64,000 nt of DNA from Sphingomonas arvum (GTDB lineage: Bacteria; Pseudomonadota; Alphaproteobacteria; Sphingomonadales; Sphingomonadaceae). Of this stretch, positions 4,645 through 57,305 are shown in pieces (position 1 is the first letter of the stretch; every line of letters starts with the position of its first letter). The DNA lies in assembly GCF_026013565.1 (NCBI RefSeq), contig NZ_JAPDOB010000001.1, positions 62,001 through 126,000 on the forward strand, in the 5' to 3' direction. The translations under genes and the position numbers were made by a program. The notes under the pieces were generated by a model. It saw nothing but the letters and a program-made list of their open reading frames with translations. It was not told the DNA's origin and did no database searches.

Positions 4645-4688
4645 ACGAAGAAGGCCCGCCTTGCTCTCGCAAGACGGGCCTTCTTCGT
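4645..4688 (-). terminator. Strong hairpin terminator downstream of ctaD
   Basis: Perfect 14-bp arms at 4645-4658 and 4675-4688 are followed inward by a 5-bp stem (cttgc/gcaag) and a TCTC tetraloop. The arms end in GAAGAA/TTCTTC, so the minus-strand transcript leaves the stem through a U-rich arm. It lies 12 bp after the ctaD stop and probably ends the ctaC-ctaD message before the peptidase gene. Confidence 0.8.
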
Positions 4689-4699
4689 GTGCGCCTTGA

Positions 4700-6397
<1,698 letters not shown>

Positions 6398-7612
6398 TTA
6401 CTGGGCGCCGTCGGTCGCGCGCTGGGCGACGCCGGGCTGGGTGTTGCCGGGAGCGGCCGGAGCGCCGGTCGCCGGAGTGGCGGTGGCCGGAGTCGGAGCC
6501 GCGCCCGGAGTGACGTTGGTCGGCGACATGGTGGTCGCAGCAGTGCTGTCGGCAGTCGGCGCGGGGCGCGCGCCGGGCATGGTGCCGCCCTTGCTGGCGA
6601 CCCACTGGGCGAAGCGCTGCGGCGTCACCACCTCGATCGCGATCGGCATGAACGCGTGGCGCGCGCCGCATAGCTCCGAGCACTGGCCGAAGTAGACGCC
6701 CGGACGGTCGACGCGGGCCCAGGTCTCATTGAGGATGCCGGGGTTGGCGTCCATCTTCACCCAGAAGGCGGGCATAGCGAAGCTGTGGATCACGTCGTTT
6801 GAGGTGACGATGAACTTCACCGTCTTGCCGGCCGGAATCACCATCCGCTCGTCGACGCCCAGCAGGCGCGGGCCGTCCGCATCGGTGCGGAAGCGCGCGC
6901 CGGCCGCGACCTCGTTCTTCTCCTTGAGCATGTTCGAGACGATCTCGAACCCGCCGTTGTCCGGATACTGGTAGGTCCAGTACCACTGGTTACCGATCAC
7001 CTTGATGGTCAGGTCGGCTGGCGGCGGGCTATACTGGTGCCGGATCAGGCGAATGGACGGAATGGCGATCGCCACCAAGACCAGCACCGGCAGCAGGGTC
7101 CAGACCACCTCGACGAAGGTATTGTGGCTGGTCCGCGACGGGGTCGGGTGGGCGGCCCGCCGAAACTTGACCACTGCATAGAGCAGCAGGGCCAGTACCA
7201 GCAGGCTCATTGCCGCGCACAGCACCAGCAGCCAGTTGTTGTGAAACGAAGCGGCTTCACGTCCGATCGGGGTGAACTGGTCCTGGGTACCCATGCGGCC
7301 GTCCGGCATGCCGATGCCGGGGGTCGGCACCGCATGCTGGAAGGTGGGGCCGGACACAGCGGGCTGGCCAGCGGAAGCAGGCGCCACCGCGCTGGGCCCC
7401 GGGGTCGGGTCAGCGATCGCACCAGGCGCCGGGGCAGGTTGCGCCGCCGGCGGGGTGCCGGTGTTCGCACTGGGACTGGCCTGGCCACTGCTGGGGGTCG
7501 GCGTCGAGGTCGCGTCGACCGTGCCCTGCTGCGGGGCGGGAGACGCCGTCTGCGCTGCCAACGGAGTGAGCCCGGCAGCGGCCAGGGCGAGTACCCATGC
7601 GGAGAACTTCAT
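6398..7612 (-). CDS. ctaC: Cytochrome c oxidase subunit II with long low-complexity ends
   Basis: Subunit II accepts electrons from cytochrome c through its binuclear CuA centre. The 404-aa protein has a signal peptide, two membrane helices and a cupredoxin domain carrying the CuA ligands in GQCSELCGARHAFM (about residues 309-322), with WYWTYQYPD for docking and electron entry. It is longer than usual because of Pro/Ala/Thr/Ser-rich segments after the signal peptide (about residues 20-105) and at the C-terminus (about 345-404). No cytochrome c heme motif (CxxCH) is present in the tail. It is the first gene of the ctaC-ctaD unit, with a promoter presumably in 7613-7777. Confidence 0.96.
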   Translation of the reverse strand: MKFSAWVLALAAAGLTPLAAQTASPAPQQGTVDATSTPTPSSGQASPSANTGTPPAAQPAPAPGAIADPTPGPSAVAPASAGQPAVSGPTFQHAVPTPGIGMPDGRMGTQDQFTPIGREAASFHNNWLLVLCAAMSLLVLALLLYAVVKFRRAAHPTPSRTSHNTFVEVVWTLLPVLVLVAIAIPSIRLIRHQYSPPPADLTIKVIGNQWYWTYQYPDNGGFEIVSNMLKEKNEVAAGARFRTDADGPRLLGVDERMVIPAGKTVKFIVTSNDVIHSFAMPAFWVKMDANPGILNETWARVDRPGVYFGQCSELCGARHAFMPIAIEVVTPQRFAQWVASKGGTMPGARPAPTADSTAATTMSPTNVTPGAAPTPATATPATGAPAAPGNTQPGVAQRATDGAQ

Positions 7613-7777
7613 TGCTACCCTTCAGGTCAGTGACGCACCGACGCGAGGGCGCGCGGCACGGGGGAAACGGCGGCCTTATAGGTACAGACCGCCCGTCTCT
7701 CAAGCGCCTCGCTCGGCCTTGGTTGAAGGCGGCCGGGCCAGACCCTATCAACGGCTGTCAGCGGGCGGATAGTGGCA

Positions 7778-8362
7778 ATGGACGAAGCACAGGTTCTGGC
7801 GGAATTCCGGGCGGCGGGAGCGCTGCTGGAGGGGCATTTCATCCTCTCATCCGGCCTGCGCAGTTCGCGCTACCTGCAGTGCGCGCGGGTGCTGATGGAC
7901 CCGCGCCGGGCCGAGCGGCTGGCGCAAGCGCTCGCCGACCGGTTGCCAAGCGAGATGCGGGACTTGGTCGAGGTGGTGGTTTCGCCGGCGATGGGCGGCG
8001 TGATCATCGGCCATGAGATGGGCCGGGCGCTGGGCGTGCCGGCACTGTTCGTGGAACGCCCGACCGGCACGTTCGAGCTGCGCCGCGGCTTCGCGCTTGA
8101 GCCTGGGCAGAAAGTGCTTCTGGTGGAAGATGTCGTCACCACCGGCCTCAGCAGTCGCGAGGCAATGGCGGCGATCGGGGCGGAAGGCGGCGAGGTGGTC
8201 GGCGCCGCGGCGCTGGTCGACCGGTCGAACGGGGTGGCCGACCTCGGCGTGCCGTTCACGCCGCTACTCAGGCTGGATGTGCCGAGCTACGCGGCCGACG
8301 CCCTGCCGCCCGAGCTGCAAGCCATTCCGGCGATCAAGCCGGGCAGCCGGACCGCCGCGTGA
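7778..8362 (+). CDS. pyrE: Orotate phosphoribosyltransferase
   Basis: PyrE joins orotate and PRPP to make orotidine 5'-phosphate in pyrimidine synthesis. The 194-aa protein shows the type I phosphoribosyltransferase PRPP loop [17 protein letters not shown] and the substrate segment [17 protein letters not shown] prefer the ATG at 7778 over the GTG at 7772 because a GGCGGA ribosome site ends about 8 bases before the ATG but only 2 before the GTG. It heads the pyrE-pdxJ-acpS-lepB run, and its TGA overlaps the pdxJ GTG. Confidence 0.95.
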
Positions 8363-9087
8363 GCGCCGCCCTGCGCCTCGGCGTCAACATCGACCATGTG
8401 GCGACCATCCGGAACGCGCGGGGCGGAAACTATCCCGATCCGGTGCGGGCCGCGCTGCTGGCGTGCGCGGCAGGGGCGGACGGAATCACGGCACACCTGC
8501 GCGAGGATCGGCGGCATATCACGGACGAGGACATCGCGCGACTGTCGGCAGAGCTGCCGGTGCCGCTCAACCTTGAGATGGCAGCCACGGACGAGATGCT
8601 GGGCATCGCGCTTCGCCATCGCCCGCACGCCGCCTGCATCGTGCCGGAACGGCGTGAGGAGCGGACCACGGAGGGCGGGCTGGATGCAGCCGGGCAGTTC
8701 GACGTGTTGCTGCGGTTCGTCGACGAATTGGGCGGCGCAGGCGTTCGGGTCAGCCTGTTCATCGAGCCGGACGAGCGGCAGATCGACGCGGCCTTGCGCC
8801 TGGGTGCCCCGGTGGTGGAGCTGCACACTGGCCGCTTCGCCCATCTGGGCGAAGGCGAGCGGGAGACGGAGCTGAAACGGTTGACAGACGCTGCGGCGCT
8901 GGCCGCCAAGAACGGGATCGAGGTGCATGCCGGGCATGGCATGACGTTTGATAACGTGGTGCCGGTCGCCGCAATCCCGCAGGTCAGGGAGCTGAACATC
9001 GGGCATTTCCTGATCGGCGAAGCTATCTTCATCGGCCTGGAGGCTAGCGTGCGGCGGATGCGCGGATTGATGGACGCGGCGCGGTGA
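8359..9087 (+). CDS. pdxJ: Pyridoxine 5'-phosphate synthase
   Basis: PdxJ condenses 1-deoxy-xylulose 5-phosphate with 3-amino-2-oxopropyl phosphate to form pyridoxine 5'-phosphate (vitamin B6). The 242-aa TIM-barrel protein carries the family signatures [20 protein letters not shown] at the N-terminus, HLREDRRHI, and [12 protein letters not shown] near residue 195. The GTG start overlaps the pyrE stop, and the TGA overlaps the acpS start (GTGA). The pdxJ-acpS-lepB order is common in proteobacteria, which supports the call. Confidence 0.97.
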
Positions 9088-9491
9088 TTCTCGGCCTCGG
9101 GTCCGACCTGTGCAACATCGAGCGCATCCAGGCTTCGGTCGATCGCTTCGGTGAGCGGTTTCTCCAGCGCGTGTTCACGCCGCAAGAGCAGGCCAAGGCT
9201 GCCCGTCGACCCTTCACCGCCGCCGGCACGCTGGCCAAGCGCTTCGCCGCGAAGGAGGCGTTCAGCAAAGCCGTCGGCACGGGCTTCAAACGCGGCGTGT
9301 TCATGAAGGATATCGGAGTCGTTAATGCACCCTCGGGTAAGCCGACCTTGATCCTGACGGGGGGCGCCCGGGCGAGGCTTGACGCGCTGACCCCGCCGGG
9401 CCACGCCGTGGAGGTCCACCTGACGATGACCGACGATCATCCCTGGGCCCAGGCATTCGTGATCCTGGAAGCCCGCAAGCTGGAGCCCTGA
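9084..9491 (+). CDS. acpS: Holo-[acyl-carrier-protein] synthase
   Basis: AcpS moves the 4'-phosphopantetheine arm from coenzyme A to apo-ACP, activating it for fatty acid synthesis. The 135-aa length fits. The two magnesium/CoA-binding signatures are present: [13 protein letters not shown] (Asp8 region) and [16 protein letters not shown] (Glu58 region). The GTG start overlaps the pdxJ stop by four bases, and the stop abuts the lepB GTG directly. Translational coupling along the whole run is likely. Confidence 0.96.
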
Positions 9492-10433
9492 GTGAGCGAC
9501 ACCGTCCTGACCGCCGACCCCAACGCCGCGCCGGTCGCGAGCCCGCCGGCGGCGCCTGCCGAGAAGAAGAGCTCGGCCCTGTGGCGCGAGCTGAAGGGGC
9601 TGTTCTGGGTCCTGCTCGCGGTGCTGGTGTTCCACAGCTTCGTCGCCAAGCCGTTCTACATTCCGTCGGAGAGCATGATGCCGGCGCTGCTGAAGGGCGA
9701 CCGGCTGGTGGTCAGCAAATATGCCTATGGCTGGTCGTGGGTCAGCCCGACGATTCCCAATCCGCTCGGCATCTTCCGTTCGCTGGTGCTGCGCGATCCG
9801 AGCGCGTCGTGGGGCGTGACGTTGCCGCCGATGCAAGGGCGGCTATGGGGCAAGATGCCGGAGCGCGGGGACGTGGTGATCGTCACGCCTCCGGGCCGCA
9901 GCGAGGACTGGATCAAGCGGGTGATCGGCCTGCCGGGCGACACGGTCGAGGTGCGTGACGGGCACCTGATCCTCAACGGCAAGGAAATGCGCCGGCAGAT
10001 ACTCCCGCCGGCCATGATCCCGGTCGACCCCAATGCGCCGTGCGGGTTCGAGTTCATGGGCTACCAGGTGCAAGCGGCGGACGGCGGACGTTACTGCCGG
10101 CTGCCGATCGTGCGCGAGACCCTGCCCAACGGCGTCGCCTACAACACGATCGACGTCGGTCTGTCGCCCGGTGACAATTTCGCGGCTACCACCGTGCCGG
10201 CCGGCCAGCTGTTCCTGATGGGCGACGACCGTGACAAGAGCGCGGACAGCCGGTTCGACGCGGCGTCCGGTGGCCTCGGCGGGCCGGTGCCGTGGGAGAA
10301 CATCGGCGGCCGGGCCGAGTTCATCACCTTCAGCCTCGATGGTACGACCCAGGTCTTCAACCCGGTGAGCTGGTTCGAGGCGTTCCGCTCCGGCCGGGCC
10401 GGCACCTCGCTGCGCGCCCATAAGCAGGACTGA
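9492..10433 (+). CDS. lepB: Signal peptidase I
   Basis: LepB removes signal peptides from secreted proteins at the periplasmic face of the inner membrane. The 313-aa protein has a cytosolic Ala/Pro-rich N-terminus, one membrane anchor (about residues 37-51) and the S26 catalytic domain. The nucleophile is Ser61 in PSESMMPALLKGD, and the general-base Lys142 sits in DWIKRVIGLPGD. The C-terminal box MGDDRDKSADSR is also present. The start is a GTG directly after the acpS stop. Confidence 0.96.
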   Translation: MSDTVLTADPNAAPVASPPAAPAEKKSSALWRELKGLFWVLLAVLVFHSFVAKPFYIPSESMMPALLKGDRLVVSKYAYGWSWVSPTIPNPLGIFRSLVLRDPSASWGVTLPPMQGRLWGKMPERGDVVIVTPPGRSEDWIKRVIGLPGDTVEVRDGHLILNGKEMRRQILPPAMIPVDPNAPCGFEFMGYQVQAADGGRYCRLPIVRETLPNGVAYNTIDVGLSPGDNFAATTVPAGQLFLMGDDRDKSADSRFDAASGGLGGPVPWENIGGRAEFITFSLDGTTQVFNPVSWFEAFRSGRAGTSLRAHKQD

Positions 10434-53966: not shown

Positions 53967-53990
53967 GAACAAACCGCTGTCCTACACGTA

Positions 53991-54015
53991 GGCAATTATA
54001 TACTTGAGAAAGCAG
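53991..54015. repeat. Left terminal inverted repeat of the IS1595-family element
   Basis: This 25-bp end starts ggcaattatatacttga and matches the reverse complement of 56661-56685 with two differences. The flanking tacacgta is the left copy of the target duplication. Confidence 0.9.
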
Positions 54016-54023
54016 ACTCAGGT

Positions 54024-54254
54024 TTGTCTATTTGTGATCAGGACGGCGAGCTAACCGATTCGGTGATCACTCCAGAGATGGAGGACGCTGGCGCGATGAC
54101 TATCCTCGACGCCGATATGGACTCAGTAAGCTTCCAACAGCTGGCGAGAGAGGTGTTCCTGGCAATGCTGTCGGCTTCGGCCAAGGCGGCAGATCAGAGA
54201 GAGCACGTTCTGTCTCTGCAGCCCGGTCCGCCATCGAACCAATCTCACGGCTGA
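54024..54254 (+). CDS. Small protein of unknown function, transposon passenger
   Basis: A 76-aa reading frame starting at a TTG (54024) or a GTG (54063). It contains VITPEMEDAGAMTILDADMD then FQQLAREVFLAML, a pattern I associate with short alphaproteobacterial proteins beginning ITPEMIEAG. The last 155 bp overlap the 3' end of the converging 207-aa gene on the other strand, so one of the two ends may be longer than the real protein. Function unknown. Confidence 0.45.
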   Translation: MSICDQDGELTDSVITPEMEDAGAMTILDADMDSVSFQQLAREVFLAMLSASAKAADQREHVLSLQPGPPSNQSHG

Positions 54255-54723
54255 ACTCTAGGAAGCTTTCGTAATCGGCAAGCTTGCTGGCGCGTGCCTC
54301 GCTCGGGATTGCTGGGGTGACGCGGTGCTTCCAGCCGAACAGCCGCGCGTCATCCCGCCTCAGCCAAAGCCAGTGAACAATCTCGTTACGCCTGGCCTTG
54401 TTAGCCGCCACCCATTTTACGATTTCGCGAACCTCATCGAATTGCGCTTTATGGGCGTCGGTAAGATCGGGATGCACTTGCTCCCAAGTCCGCGTAAGTC
54501 GCCTTAGGGCCTTCAACCGGTTATCGGGCGAGAGATCTTCGGTCAGTGCTTGGGCCAGCATCTCGTCACTGTGCACGAGCTTCGCTAGGATGCCTTCCAG
54601 CGAAAGGTCCAACCAGCTCCACGTTGCCGCTACGGAGCCGATCGCAGCCAACTGGTTGATTGTTGGCCACGCGGTGCTGGGGATGCCCTTCATAGGCGAC
54701 GGGTGAGAAGGGTCGAAAGGCAT
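54100..54723 (-). CDS. Helical protein with HEPN-type RNxxxH motif, transposon passenger
   Basis: A 207-aa, mostly helical protein. The segment LTDAHKAQFDEVREIVKWVA then KARRNEIVHWLWLRRDD contains R-N-E-I-V-H, the Rx4H form of the HEPN ribonuclease motif, near residue 110. A WSWLDLSLEGILAKL helix lies near residue 35. I do not recognise a named family. HEPN proteins often act as RNA-cutting toxins or defence effectors; activity here is inference only. The start could be ATG 54723 or ATG 54693; the former overlaps the start of the divergent 39-aa gene in a shared CATG. Confidence 0.65.
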   Translation of the reverse strand: MPFDPSHPSPMKGIPSTAWPTINQLAAIGSVAATWSWLDLSLEGILAKLVHSDEMLAQALTEDLSPDNRLKALRRLTRTWEQVHPDLTDAHKAQFDEVREIVKWVAANKARRNEIVHWLWLRRDDARLFGWKHRVTPAIPSEARASKLADYESFLEFSREIGSMADRAAETERALSDLPPWPKPTALPGTPLSPAVGSLLSPYRRRG

Positions 54724-54841
54724 GTCAGAGACCGATCAGAAGCGAGAGGACGAGGTTTTAAAGCGGATGCTGGCGACCAAGCCGAAGCCGCACAAGCCTT
54801 CACAACAGGAACAACGGACCGGGACGCCTGAGAAACGGTAG
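54722..54841 (+). CDS. 39-aa protein, transposon passenger
   Basis: A very short frame reading MSETDQKREDEVLKRMLATK and then PKPHKPSQQEQRTGTPEKR. The LKRMLATKPKPHKP part resembles the tail of many small proteobacterial proteins (LKRMLxTPPKPHK). Its ATG shares the CATG at 54721-54724 with the ATG of the divergent HEPN-motif gene, so the two promoters must sit inside each other's genes. Function unknown; partner to the neighbour is possible. Confidence 0.5.
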   Translation: MSETDQKREDEVLKRMLATKPKPHKPSQQEQRTGTPEKR

Positions 54842-54885
54842 GAACGCGATTTGACCGCACGCGCTTGCGAATGCAGGAGAGCGCC

Positions 54886-55143
54886 GTGCCACTCTATCAT
54901 ATCCAGCTTCGCACCGAGTCCCATGTCCAGACAGCGTTAGACGTTGAGCGAGACGATCTCACCGCCTTGCGGAAGGAATTGGCCCAGTTCGTCGGACGGC
55001 TACTGATGGATCATGCAGATCAAATCTGGGTCGATGAGGATTGGCGCGTCGATGTGACCGACGACACCGGGCTCATCCTCTTCGTCATGGAAATTCAGGC
55101 CACCGACTCGGCTGCAACGATGAGCTACCGCCCAAACCGATAA
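54886..55143 (+). CDS. Small DUF6894-like protein, transposon passenger
   Basis: An 85-aa protein from a GTG at 54886 with CAGGAG upstream. The pattern PLYHIQLRTESHVQTALDVE, a helix DDLTALRKELAQFVGRLL, then WRVDVTDDTGLILFVMEI resembles the small DUF6894 group of alphaproteobacteria. No function is known. Base composition fits the transposon rather than the flanks. Confidence 0.6.
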   Translation: MPLYHIQLRTESHVQTALDVERDDLTALRKELAQFVGRLLMDHADQIWVDEDWRVDVTDDTGLILFVMEIQATDSAATMSYRPNR

Positions 55144-55221
55144 ACCCGTGCTTTCGTCGGGCCTACTGGTCGCAATAAGTCAAAGGCCGCCGTAGCCCGA
55201 GAGCCACGGCGGCCAGAACCG

Positions 55222-55416
55222 TTAAAGAAGACTGAGCTGGTTGGAGTCACCACGCTTGCCGGTGTTGATCTCAGAGACCCGTCCCTGATTCCATCCTAGC
55301 TCAGCAGCGATGTCGTGCTGGTTCTCGCCGATGGCAAGCCTAGCACGAACCCAGCGGTAGTTCTCTTCGTTAAGTGGCGCACGGATGCGCTTCTTCTTCG
55401 GCTCGTCGAACAACAT
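55222..55416 (-). CDS. Small helix-turn-helix protein, transposon passenger
   Basis: A 64-aa basic protein. The segment NYRWVRARLAIGENQHDIAA then ELGWNQGRVSEINTGKRG is an HTH of the sigma-like/Xre type. The ATG at 55416 has GGAGG with 8-base spacing. It may regulate the transposase or the passenger genes; this is inference from position. Confidence 0.6.
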   Translation of the reverse strand: MLFDEPKKKRIRAPLNEENYRWVRARLAIGENQHDIAAELGWNQGRVSEINTGKRGDSNQLSLL

Positions 55417-55727
55417 GGGAGTGTTCCTCCATGAAGGCAGCCGACGCTTGACGTGGAGTCCGTTCTGCGGGAAAGGTCCCGCGTCGGGAGTGTTCCAGAC
55501 TGTGCGCGCCGACCAGGAATGCACAGTTTGCCCCGACACAGGGCTCGGTGGTTGCACACCGGGCCCTAGCCATTTTGGGACAATCGACTCCTCTTATTCG
55601 TAAGAGTCGCATCTGAGTCGAGTCCGAATGTTCTCCGTCCCCGCTATCCACGAACAAAGGCCGCTCAAATCAAGAACGCGTCCAGCGCTTGCGAGGGCTT
55701 CCTATACGGACAGGTTCCTCAAACAGC
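55417..55727. other. Gene-free stretch within the transposon
   Basis: 311 bp with no supported gene. A perfect 6-bp hairpin with a TTCG loop (ctctta 55591-55596 / taagag 55601-55606) overlaps an alternative stem cgactc (55585-55590) / gagtcg (55603-55608). It may be a transcript end for the transposase on the minus strand. Confidence 0.4.
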
Positions 55728-56657
55728 TTAGGCTGCGAGCGAACTAGTCCGCCGATAGGTGAGACGCTTGCCGGCGATCCCCTTGAGGGCGATGTCCGCA
55801 CGCTCACGGTCGCTGATGTCCTTGGTGGAATAGCGGAAGTCGAACTCGGCAAGGTAGCGGTGCAGGTGAGCAGCGCTCCAGTGGTGGTAGGTGCCGATCA
55901 CGCCACGCTTTAGGATGGAGAAGAAGTTTTCAGCGGTGTTGGCGTGGATGCCGCCCTTCTTGGCGAACTGGAGGCCAGCGTGCAGCACGCGGCCATGACC
56001 GGCGAACTCCTTGCCGATCGACCAGTAGAAACGAGCTTCGTCCGTCATGAGGGTGGAAGCGCGGTCAACGTTAGTGACCAGCGCCGCACGGACGTTGCCG
56101 TGGTGAATGTTGGCAACGTGGAAGGAGCGGGCGCGACCGTCGCGCTCAACAAGGGTGACAACCTTCTTCTTGGGAGCAACGTCACCCGAGAGGCGCTTGC
56201 GCTTCGCACCGCCGATGTAGGCTTCGTCTGACTCGACAACCTTGCCGGGTCCGCCGAGCGGGCCGGGGTTGTGGTCAGTCATGGCCTCACGGATGCGGTG
56301 CATCATGAACCATGCGGTCTTGTAGGTAACGCCGAGCATACGCTGAATTTGAGCAGCGCTCATGCCCTTCTTGCTGGCGCACAGCAGGTGGTTGGCGAGC
56401 AGCCACTTGTTCAACGGGATCTTGGAGCGCTCGAACACAGTACCAACCGTAACGGTGAACTGCTCACGGCACTTGTTGCACTGGAGCAGACCGTCGCGGT
56501 GCTTCTTGCCTTCAAGCCGCGTCACATCGGCCGAGCCACAATGCACGCACTCCGGCGTATCACCCCAGCGGAGAGCTTCTAGGTGCTTGCGAGCCGCAAC
56601 CGGGTCGATGAAGCGAGGGGCAAGAATGTCGTCCATGAGAAGCATATGCTCGCTCAT
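55728..56657 (-). CDS. tnp: IS1595-family transposase (ISXO2-like domain)
   Basis: A 309-aa intact transposase. The N-terminal zinc ribbon is CVHCGSADVT ... LQCNKCREQF (about residues 37-64). An HTH region follows (SAAQIQRMLGVTYKTAWFMM). The ISXO2-like catalytic domain has acidic residues in VESDEAYIGGAKRKR, LMTDEARFYW and NTAENFFSILKRGVIG. The ATG at 56657 (MSEHMLLMDDI) lies just inside the right inverted repeat; an in-frame TTG at 56672 lies within the repeat itself. It should move the whole element. Confidence 0.93.
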   Translation of the reverse strand: MSEHMLLMDDILAPRFIDPVAARKHLEALRWGDTPECVHCGSADVTRLEGKKHRDGLLQCNKCREQFTVTVGTVFERSKIPLNKWLLANHLLCASKKGMSAAQIQRMLGVTYKTAWFMMHRIREAMTDHNPGPLGGPGKVVESDEAYIGGAKRKRLSGDVAPKKKVVTLVERDGRARSFHVANIHHGNVRAALVTNVDRASTLMTDEARFYWSIGKEFAGHGRVLHAGLQFAKKGGIHANTAENFFSILKRGVIGTYHHWSAAHLHRYLAEFDFRYSTKDISDRERADIALKGIAGKRLTYRRTSSLAA

Positions 56658-56660
56658 AGG

Positions 56661-56685
56661 CTGCTTTGTCAAGTATATAAGTGCC
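56661..56685. repeat. Right terminal inverted repeat of the IS1595-family element
   Basis: Reads ctgctttgtcaagtatataa and then gtgcc; its reverse complement matches 53991-54015. The right target duplication tacacgta follows directly. Confidence 0.9.
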
Positions 56686-56741
56686 TACACGTAACCAAAA
56701 AGGTTAGCACTGCTGCGAATCGGAACCGCAGGAGTGTTTTC

Positions 56742-57305
56742 ATGAACGACCTCGACGCCACCATCTGTGAGCTACTAGACACGCTGATCGAGCGCGAGGG
56801 CGGTTACGTGAACCATCCCGCCGATCGTGGGGGTCCCACCTGCTTCGGCATCACCGAAGCGGTGGCCCGCGCCCACGGCTATCGCGGCGCAATGGCCGCT
56901 CTGCCGCGCAGCGAGGCGGAGGACATCTACCTGCGGCTCTACTGGAACCGGCCGCGCTTCGACGAGGTCGCCAAGCGCAGCGTTCGCATCGCCGCCGAGT
57001 TGTTCGACACCGGCGCCAACATGGGCCCGGCCGTCGCCGCCACCTTTCTCCAGCGCGCGCTCACGGCGCTGAACCGCAACGGCAAGGACTTCTGCGATCT
57101 GGTGCCCGACGGCCGGATCGGTCCGCGCACGCTGGCGGCGCTCGACGGATATCTGCGAACCCGCGGGCAGGGGCGCGGCGAGACCGTGCTGCTGCGCGCA
57201 TTGGAAGCGCTCCAGGGCGAGCGTTACCTGCGCCTCGCGGAGAAGCGCCCCGCCAACGAAGCGTTCCTGTACGGCTGGCTCGCGAACCGCATCGGTGAAC
57301 ACTGA
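56742..57305 (+). CDS. GH108 endolysin (N-acetylmuramidase)
   Basis: A 187-aa peptidoglycan hydrolase. The GH108 domain starts at LIEREGGYVNHPADRGGPTC, with the catalytic Glu in EGG and the GFGIT-like CFGIT. A C-terminal PG_binding_3-type part (DGRIGPRTLAALDGYL) follows. No signal peptide is present, so it needs a holin, which is the next gene. The ATG has CAGGAG upstream. The pair resembles phage or gene-transfer-agent lysis genes. The transposon sits 56 bp upstream and may have displaced its promoter. Confidence 0.9.
   Translation: MNDLDATICELLDTLIEREGGYVNHPADRGGPTCFGITEAVARAHGYRGAMAALPRSEAEDIYLRLYWNRPRFDEVAKRSVRIAAELFDTGANMGPAVAATFLQRALTALNRNGKDFCDLVPDGRIGPRTLAALDGYLRTRGQGRGETVLLRALEALQGERYLRLAEKRPANEAFLYGWLANRIGEH

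What the first reader, a model, noticed from the sequence alone, without database searches (positions are those of the whole stretch)
53983..56693. Complete IS1595-family transposon carrying several small passenger genes
Both terminal inverted repeats (53991-54015, 56661-56685), an exact 8-bp target duplication (tacacgta) and an intact ISXO2-type transposase are present. About 1.7 kb of the 2.7-kb element is not transposase. It holds small frames with HEPN-motif, HTH and DUF6894-like features and lower GC. Passenger genes are known in some IS1595 groups, but this set looks undescribed to me and could be a selfish or defensive cargo.
Basis: partly seen in the sequence, partly recalled or inferred. 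Interest (0 to 1): 0.8.

Follow-up and report, generated by a model that had tools for sequence, protein, structure and literature searches.

The report
Jumping gene with swappable cargo slots
A small bacterial jumping gene carries a possible RNA-cutting toxin, and its relatives keep the same engine and a tiny companion gene while exchanging their other cargo, which in some of them looks like virus defence.

Summary
Window 53991-56685 is one 2,695-bp IS1595-family transposon with matching 25-bp ends, an exact 8-bp duplication, an intact transposase and 1.7 kb of other genes; four relatives show the uninterrupted site. In a top-ranked sample of related transposases from the same bacterial family, 65 of 83 places have recognisable ends, and all 65 carry cargo. 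They share a plan. They frame two slots whose contents are replaced wholesale. Tiny-gene type changes only twice on the transposase tree, the minimum; the two slots reassort independently. In the window's type the slot-2 gene is a fast-changing protein whose firmest constant is R-N-x3-H, a HEPN-ribonuclease-like signature. Its start codon overlaps the divergent tiny gene's start in one CATG (21 of 30 elements, plus four loci in other families). Some sister elements carry BstA, PD-Lambda-5 or methylase genes. I read it as a compact shuttle for conflict genes; HEPN activity, defence and the tiny gene's role are inferred. Passenger-bearing IS1595 elements are known; this plan I did not find described in an open-access library.

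The parts
53983..53990 (.). target-site duplication TACACGTA, left copy
   Evidence: exact match to 56686-56693; single-copy counterparts in 4 relatives
53991..54015 (+). terminal inverted repeat, transposase-distal end
   Evidence: 23/25 with the other end
54024..54254 (+). 76-codon frame partly antisense to the 3' end of the HEPN-like gene; similar frame near the same end in other elements; coding status unsure
   Evidence: blastp cluster of 8 of 20 elements; no Pfam match
54100..54723 (-). slot-2 cargo: 207-aa, mostly helical protein with a HEPN-like RNxxxH motif; predicted (not shown) RNase effector
   Evidence: 15 homologues including itself; R112 and H117 in 14 of 15, N113 in 15 of 15; profile match to sister cargo with RNxxxH in register; AF2 model helical, motif near the end of helix 89-121
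54721..54724 (.). CATG palindrome holding both start codons (tiny gene on +, HEPN-like gene on -)
54722..54841 (+). tiny gene type A, 39 aa (MSETDQKREDEVLKRMLATKPKPHK...), conserved chassis component
   Evidence: type A in 30 of 67 elements; codon pattern of a protein; type changes twice on the transposase tree
54865..55143 (+). slot-1 cargo: DUF6894 protein, 92 aa
   Evidence: PF21834 4.9e-11; phmmer with it found no other element
55222..55557 (-). slot-1 cargo: small HTH-like protein; homologues start near residue 48, so the true gene may be about 55222-55416
   Evidence: same frame in 5 elements; PHROG repressor 0.0054; Pfam below cut-off
55728..56672 (-). IS1595-family transposase, up to 314 aa (TTG start; ATG five codons in)
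   Evidence: NF033547 3e-52, PF12762 5.9e-29, PF12760 5.1e-10
56661..56685 (-). terminal inverted repeat, transposase-proximal end
56686..56693 (.). target-site duplication TACACGTA, right copy

Best explanation
SHOWN (in the sample): the 2,695 bp inserted as one unit. It belongs to a group of IS1595-family elements built as a chassis (left end plus transposase; a tiny gene; right end) around two slots whose contents are exchanged wholesale and independently, while the tiny gene is inherited with the transposase. INFERRED: the slots hold conflict genes (RNase-like toxins, DNA methylases, abortive-infection-like genes) that pay for the element's upkeep by protecting the cell or addicting it. 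The window's slot-2 protein is a HEPN-like, metal-independent RNase that arrests or kills the cell under some trigger such as phage infection. Its start codon shares CATG with the divergent tiny gene, so each gene's 5' signals must lie inside the other gene, and any transcript with a leader is antisense to its neighbour's start; this probably keeps the effector low. Cargo is most likely exchanged by recombination between co-resident elements at the conserved islands.
For: Unit insertion. Cargo: 65 of 83 transposase places have ends (61 with an 8/8 duplication), all 65 with 0.85-2.7 kb beyond the transposase. Swapping: in 61 pairs with transposase DNA 76-91% identical, DNA similarity beyond the transposase block lies in the tiny-gene frame (53 pairs) and the right end (36 pairs); 3 matches elsewhere, in 2 pairs. 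Tiny-gene type changes twice on the tree, the minimum; shuffled mean 29.1. Of 1,540 pairs, 30 share cargo: 21 slot 1 only, 8 slot 2 only, 1 across slots, 0 both. HEPN-like: RNxxxH in 13 of 21 against a shuffled mean of 0.42, maximum 4; in 8 sister cargos (18-25% identity to the first) the only invariant columns are G, R and H; profile matches 95.9, 96.8 and 94.6%. CATG: of 177 candidate frames 21 qualify and all 21 are tiny genes; 4 of 13 further loci in other families show it, three with RNxxxH and one with RVRLTH. Defence-like cargo in sisters: BstA 9e-116, PD-Lambda-5 A/B 3e-178 and 2e-116, PDC-S46 5e-255, MTase_II 2e-59.
Against: No library names the window's HEPN-like protein and the fold searches gave no HEPN match. 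The general Rx4-6H pattern occurs in all 21 cargos but also in 16.3 of 21 shuffled ones, so only the narrower RNxxxH is informative. 4 of 21 CATG-linked cargos lack R[NHKQDT]xxxH, and one (L072) looks by eye like an HNH nuclease. 9 of 30 type-A elements lack the CATG link with a frame of 160 codons or more, and 11 of 67 elements have neither tiny gene. At most 41 of 99 cargo frames matched any Pfam family, and I made no comparison with host background, so enrichment in defence is not shown. No expression, toxicity or transposition data. The swap mechanism is not observed. The sample is the top of a ranked list, not random, and pairs are not independent.
Confidence: 0.68

Rival explanations
1. 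Addiction module: the HEPN-like protein is a toxin and the tiny protein (or its transcript, antisense to the toxin's start) is its antitoxin, so that losing the transposon harms the cell.
For: Head-to-head pairing with overlapping starts in 21 of 30; small charged protein; Tn3-family transposons carry toxin-antitoxin pairs, HEPN/MNT among them (PMC7157771, sections 14 and 16).
Against: One tiny family sits beside 11 cargo families not linked by blastp, though several are remotely related by profile, and type A also accompanies non-HEPN cargo such as PD-Lambda-5 (L104); a protein antitoxin would have to fit them all. It follows the transposase rather than the cargo.
Confidence: 0.2
2. The tiny gene is a component of transposition (accessory protein or internal transposase site) and has nothing to do with the cargo; the cargo merely abuts it.
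For: Its type tracks the transposase clade; of 30 type-A loci inspected 27 have transposase sequence (some only fragments) within 1.5 kb and two more an end; some third positions are fixed (T4 ACC 12/12, R15 CGG 13/14).
Against: 11 of 67 elements lack both types. The exact start-codon overlap with cargo is unexplained unless the junction is where cargo is exchanged.
Confidence: 0.35
3. No replacement: the slot genes are ancestral and simply evolve extremely fast, so that homology is lost between close relatives.
For: Class A cargos do include one remote HEPN-like superfamily.
Against: L134 and L137 share 91% of transposase DNA but carry, by eye, different kinds of gene. For 19 of 21 elements the nearest transposase relative has cargo without detectable homology (blastp 1e-3).
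Confidence: 0.07
4. Chance hitch-hiking: the cargo genes are random host genes caught between ends.
For: At least 58 of 99 cargo frames match no Pfam family; no background comparison was made.
Against: The families that do match include DUF3800, PIN, GmrSD, Panacea, Bro/KilA, HNH, D12 methylase, PemK and BstA; slot position is kept in 29 of 30 homologous pairs.
Confidence: 0.05

Closest known systems
IS1595 insertion-sequence family, 'transporter IS' members with passenger genes (Siguier et al. 2009, known here only through a passage and the reference in PMC3129680)
   Same: Transposase family, 8-bp duplication, GG-starting inverted ends, passenger genes unrelated to transposition
   Different: I found no description of a conserved tiny gene, two slots, start-codon overlap or defence-type turnover; the original paper was not in the library and ISfinder was not available
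Toxin-antitoxin genes in Tn3-family transposons (PMC7157771; outline and sections 14 and 16 read)
   Same: Toxin genes of several families, HEPN and PIN included, acquired repeatedly at a fixed place beside the transposition module
   Different: Tn3 elements have a resolvase and res site and named antitoxin families; here the element is small, the partner is one tiny unnamed family, and whole slots are exchanged
Tn7-like transposons with defence cargo (PMC8649781; abstract and passages seen)
   Same: Transposon cargo enriched in defence and toxin genes, HEPN in 37 transposons
   Different: A different, larger transposon type (size recalled); here 1.8-3.7 kb with a single transposase, and enrichment was not measured
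P2/P4 hotspots of antiviral systems (PMC9122126; search listing with start of abstract only)
   Same: Hotspots in a mobile element that hold variable defence cargo
   Different: Phage and satellite genomes, not an insertion sequence
HEPN RNase superfamily (PMC3710099; abstract and passages seen)
   Same: RNxxxH motif with a polar residue after R, at the end of a helix; mostly helical; fast evolution
   Different: No known HEPN family model matches the window's protein; no MNT partner among the frames tested

Membership tests
IS1595 family | transposase matches the family models | tested here: met
   NF033547 177.6 bits, cut-off 75; PF12762 and PF12760 above cut-off
IS1595 family | 8-bp target duplication and inverted ends beginning GG (feature recalled) | tested here: met
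   TACACGTA 8/8, ends GGCAATTATATACTT / GGCACTTATATACTT
IS1595 family | assignment to a named group (ISNwi1, ISNha5 and so on; names recalled) | not testable with these tools
   ISfinder not available
transporter IS (IS with passenger genes) | extra genes unrelated to transposition lie between the ends | tested here: met
   HEPN-like, DUF6894 and HTH-like frames inside the ends
HEPN superfamily | Rx4-6H motif, polar residue after R | tested here: met
   R112-N113-xxx-H117, R and H in 14 of 15; definition from PMC3710099 passages
HEPN superfamily | four-helix HEPN fold, motif at the end of helix 3 | tested here: inconclusive
   AF2 model (mean pLDDT 73.5) helical, motif near the end of helix 89-121, but Foldseek and VIA gave no HEPN match above the helical background
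HEPN superfamily | match to a curated HEPN profile | tested here: not met
   no credible Pfam, NCBIfam or PADLOC match for the window protein; sister cargo L068 has DUF4145 at 3.3e-4, just under its cut-off. So called HEPN-like, not filed as a member
HEPN superfamily | RNase activity | not testable with these tools
   needs an assay
HEPN/MNT toxin-antitoxin | adjacent MNT nucleotidyltransferase antitoxin | tested here: not met
   no nucleotidyltransferase match among the six frames of the element that were scanned
known anti-phage defence systems | match of the window cargo to PADLOC models | tested here: not met
   no credible hit for the three window cargo frames scanned; hits in sister elements

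The most novel reading that the evidence does not exclude
The tiny gene is a dedicated third component of a minimal defence-shuffling transposon: a fixed dock that both belongs to the transposition chassis and marks, to the base in some cases (CATG), where cargo is exchanged. The elements would then work like a transposable, integron-like carousel of small immune effectors, with mutual antisense control between dock and effector.
Probability: 0.3. Interest if true: 0.88.

Novelty: new variant of a known kind. Interest (0 to 1): 0.76.

Why it matters
Related transposases are common in this bacterial family (159 of 397 genomes), and every one of the 65 elements with mapped ends carried cargo. 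If the reading is right, these short elements are an overlooked route by which toxin and defence genes spread, a precise place to look for new effectors, and a rare case where cargo replacement can be dated against a vertically inherited chassis. The conserved head-to-head start-codon overlap is an unusual gene arrangement that can be tested directly.
Full report
WHAT IS THERE. The element runs from 53991 to 56685 (2,695 bp). Its ends match at 23 of 25 positions and it is flanked by exact copies of TACACGTA. The transposase (55728-56672, minus strand) passes the IS1595 curated models. The element occurs once in its 2.75-Mb genome. Two same-genus genomes have contigs whose lengths match records named Sphingomonas caseinilyticus and S. 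edaphi, so the host is a sphingomonad by inference.

INSERTION AS A UNIT. Upstream of the neighbouring endolysin-like gene, 4 of 29 same-genus loci scanned keep the spacer without an insert: TGTCC-TACAACGA-ACCAAAAAGGTTA, the same with TACAGCGA or TACACATA, and a fourth beginning TTTCC with TACAACCA; the other 25 gave no pattern match. The window reads TGTCC-TACACGTA-[element]-TACACGTA-ACCAAAAAGGTTA. In the two loci with msrA within reach (L037, L042) a gene that by eye looks like a ketopantoate reductase lies between msrA and the site, so the gene order differs even though the spacer agrees.

EVERY MAPPED ELEMENT CARRIES CARGO. Transposase relatives occur in 159 of 397 family genomes. I fetched 80 regions around the best-scoring ones, not a random sample. 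Of 83 transposase places, 65 have ends with 18-24 of 25 matching bases and duplications (61 at 8/8, three at 7/8, one at 6/8). Letter-shuffled loci never scored above 27.5 in 34 tries, against a threshold of 30.5; runner-up placements in real loci mostly stayed at or under 29. All 65 carry 0.85-2.7 kb beyond the transposase; the scan could have found a bare IS and found none. Duplications are 72% A+T in flanks of 39% A+T.

THE TINY GENE. Its family (consensus like MTDTDQKKEDEVLRRMLKTPPKPHK, type A) is present in 30 of 67 elements, the weakest at E about 2e-3 (the 65 plus L078 and L083, which have ends but no duplication). It behaves as protein: in codons 8-17 differences at positions 1/2/3 run 0.18/0.13/0.38, and invariant Leu13 uses six codons. 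A second tiny family without evident similarity (KFKEAARELECDEDEARFDERLKKVAK, type B) occurs in 26 of the other 37 and in none of the 30; 11 have neither. On a quick transposase tree the three states need two changes, the minimum (shuffled mean 29.1). Type A was matched in 42 of 397 family genomes (47 places); of the 30 places held as loci, 27 have transposase sequence, some of it fragments, within 1.5 kb, two more have an end, one (L193) neither. There are 1,931 homologues; the 120 listed have no Pfam domain and no functional name.

TWO SLOTS. In 61 pairs whose transposase DNA is 76-91% identical (15 of type A, 46 of type B), similarity beyond the transposase block is limited to the tiny-gene frame (53 pairs) and the right end (36 pairs); three further matches fall in two pairs. 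L134 and L137 share 91% of transposase DNA but, by eye, different kinds of cargo. For the window, similarity to L065 and L066 resumes at the tiny gene and stops at element position 1965, the end of CATG. In ten type-A pairs the island ends 1-2 nt past the tiny start in three, 8-13 nt past in four and 18 nt or more short in three, so base-exact junctions are not general. Among 1,540 pairs of 56 elements, 30 share cargo homology: 21 in slot 1 only, 8 in slot 2 only, one across slots, none in both. The slots are therefore filled independently.

OVERLAPPING STARTS. In the window the tiny gene (+) and the HEPN-like gene (-) both start inside CATG at 54721-54724. A scan of 177 opposite-strand ATG frames of 35-60 codons in the 30 type-A elements found 21 with CATG and an opposite frame of at least 160 codons; all 21 are tiny genes. 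The 14 best-scoring type-A elements, the window's among them, all have it. Outside the discovery family, in 289 genomes of the class, 13 further loci were examined: 8 have the transposase nearby, and 4 (L207, L209, L210, L214) show CATG with a 163-199-codon partner, three with RNxxxH and one with RVRLTH; L210 has no transposase within its 1.5 kb.

THE CARGO. Of the 21 CATG-linked proteins, 13 contain RNxxxH (shuffled mean 0.42, maximum 4 in 2,000 runs), against 6 of 46 largest cargo frames elsewhere; the looser Rx4-6H is in all 21 but is expected in 16 by chance. In eight sister cargos (18-25% identity to the first) the only invariant columns are G25, R103 and H108. Profile comparison links the window family to two sister groups at 95.9 and 94.6%, with the motif in register. 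This matches the published HEPN signature (PMC3710099 passages). No curated HEPN model or fold match was obtained, so I call it HEPN-like. Slot 1 of the window holds a DUF6894 protein and a small HTH-like protein. Of ten sister proteins chosen because they looked defence-like, eight matched PADLOC: BstA (L107, weaker in L138), both genes of PD-Lambda-5 (L104), PDC-S46 (L106), a type II methylase (L140) and weak NsnA matches (L096, L123); L109 and L117 had none. Among 99 cargo frames Pfam shows DUF3800 (9), PIN (3), GmrSD (2), Panacea (2), Bro-N (2), HNH_5 (2), DUF4145 (2) and singles such as PemK, but also unrelated singles such as a serine protease; at least 58 frames match nothing. A Methylobacterium oryzae plasmid holds a 3,413-bp element with an exact duplication, a VapC-type cargo and, by eye, a type-B-like tiny protein.

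HOW IT LIKELY WORKS. Shown in the sample: unit insertion, chassis and slots, independent exchange, tiny gene tied to the transposase. Inferred: the HEPN-like protein is an RNase effector; overlapping starts force mutual control of the two genes; exchange occurs by recombination between co-resident copies at the conserved islands. Tandem elements sharing one duplication (L068) show that co-residence happens. Fixed third positions in the tiny gene (Thr4 always ACC in 12 of 12, Arg15 CGG in 13 of 14) hint at a DNA-level constraint, perhaps a translation signal of the cargo gene, but the cargo-strand GGTG that would serve is present in only 7 of 14.

KNOWN OR NEW. Passenger-bearing IS1595 elements are known (PMC3129680 passage). 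Transposon toxins and defence cargo are known in Tn3 and Tn7. The tiny gene, the two-slot plan and the CATG coupling did not turn up in ten searches of an open-access library, which is not proof of absence.

Noticed in passing
L068, two elements at about 4,650-9,580: Two different elements (transposases each about 66% identical to the window's) sit in tandem with AAGAGGCG before, between and after them: a second element inserted exactly at the first one's duplication.
   Followed up: partly
L125, L127, L139, L140, L144: In one subclade the duplications are nearly the same (TAGAGAAA three times, TAGAGGTA, TAGAGGAA), hinting at a target consensus rather than simple A+T preference.
   Followed up: no
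window 56694-57305 and L036-L064: The endolysin-like gene beside the insertion is near-universal in the genus (68 of 71 genomes), so it is not a passing prophage; 4 of 29 relatives keep AACCAAAAAGGTTA upstream.
   Followed up: partly
L205 2277-4830 (Methylobacterium oryzae pMOC1): IS1595 element on a plasmid typed as mobilizable, with a VapC-like gene, a neighbour and a small type-B-like protein, which would extend the plan to another order.
   Followed up: partly
slot 2 of L120, L129, L134: By eye, related small membrane proteins recur in slot 2 of type-B elements whose slot-1 cargo differs; the final count links L120 and L134 only.
   Followed up: partly
window 54024-54254 and 7 other elements: A short frame with an ITPEMVEAG-like stretch recurs next to the transposase-distal end (cluster of 8 of 20), partly antisense to the cargo 3' end.
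   Followed up: no
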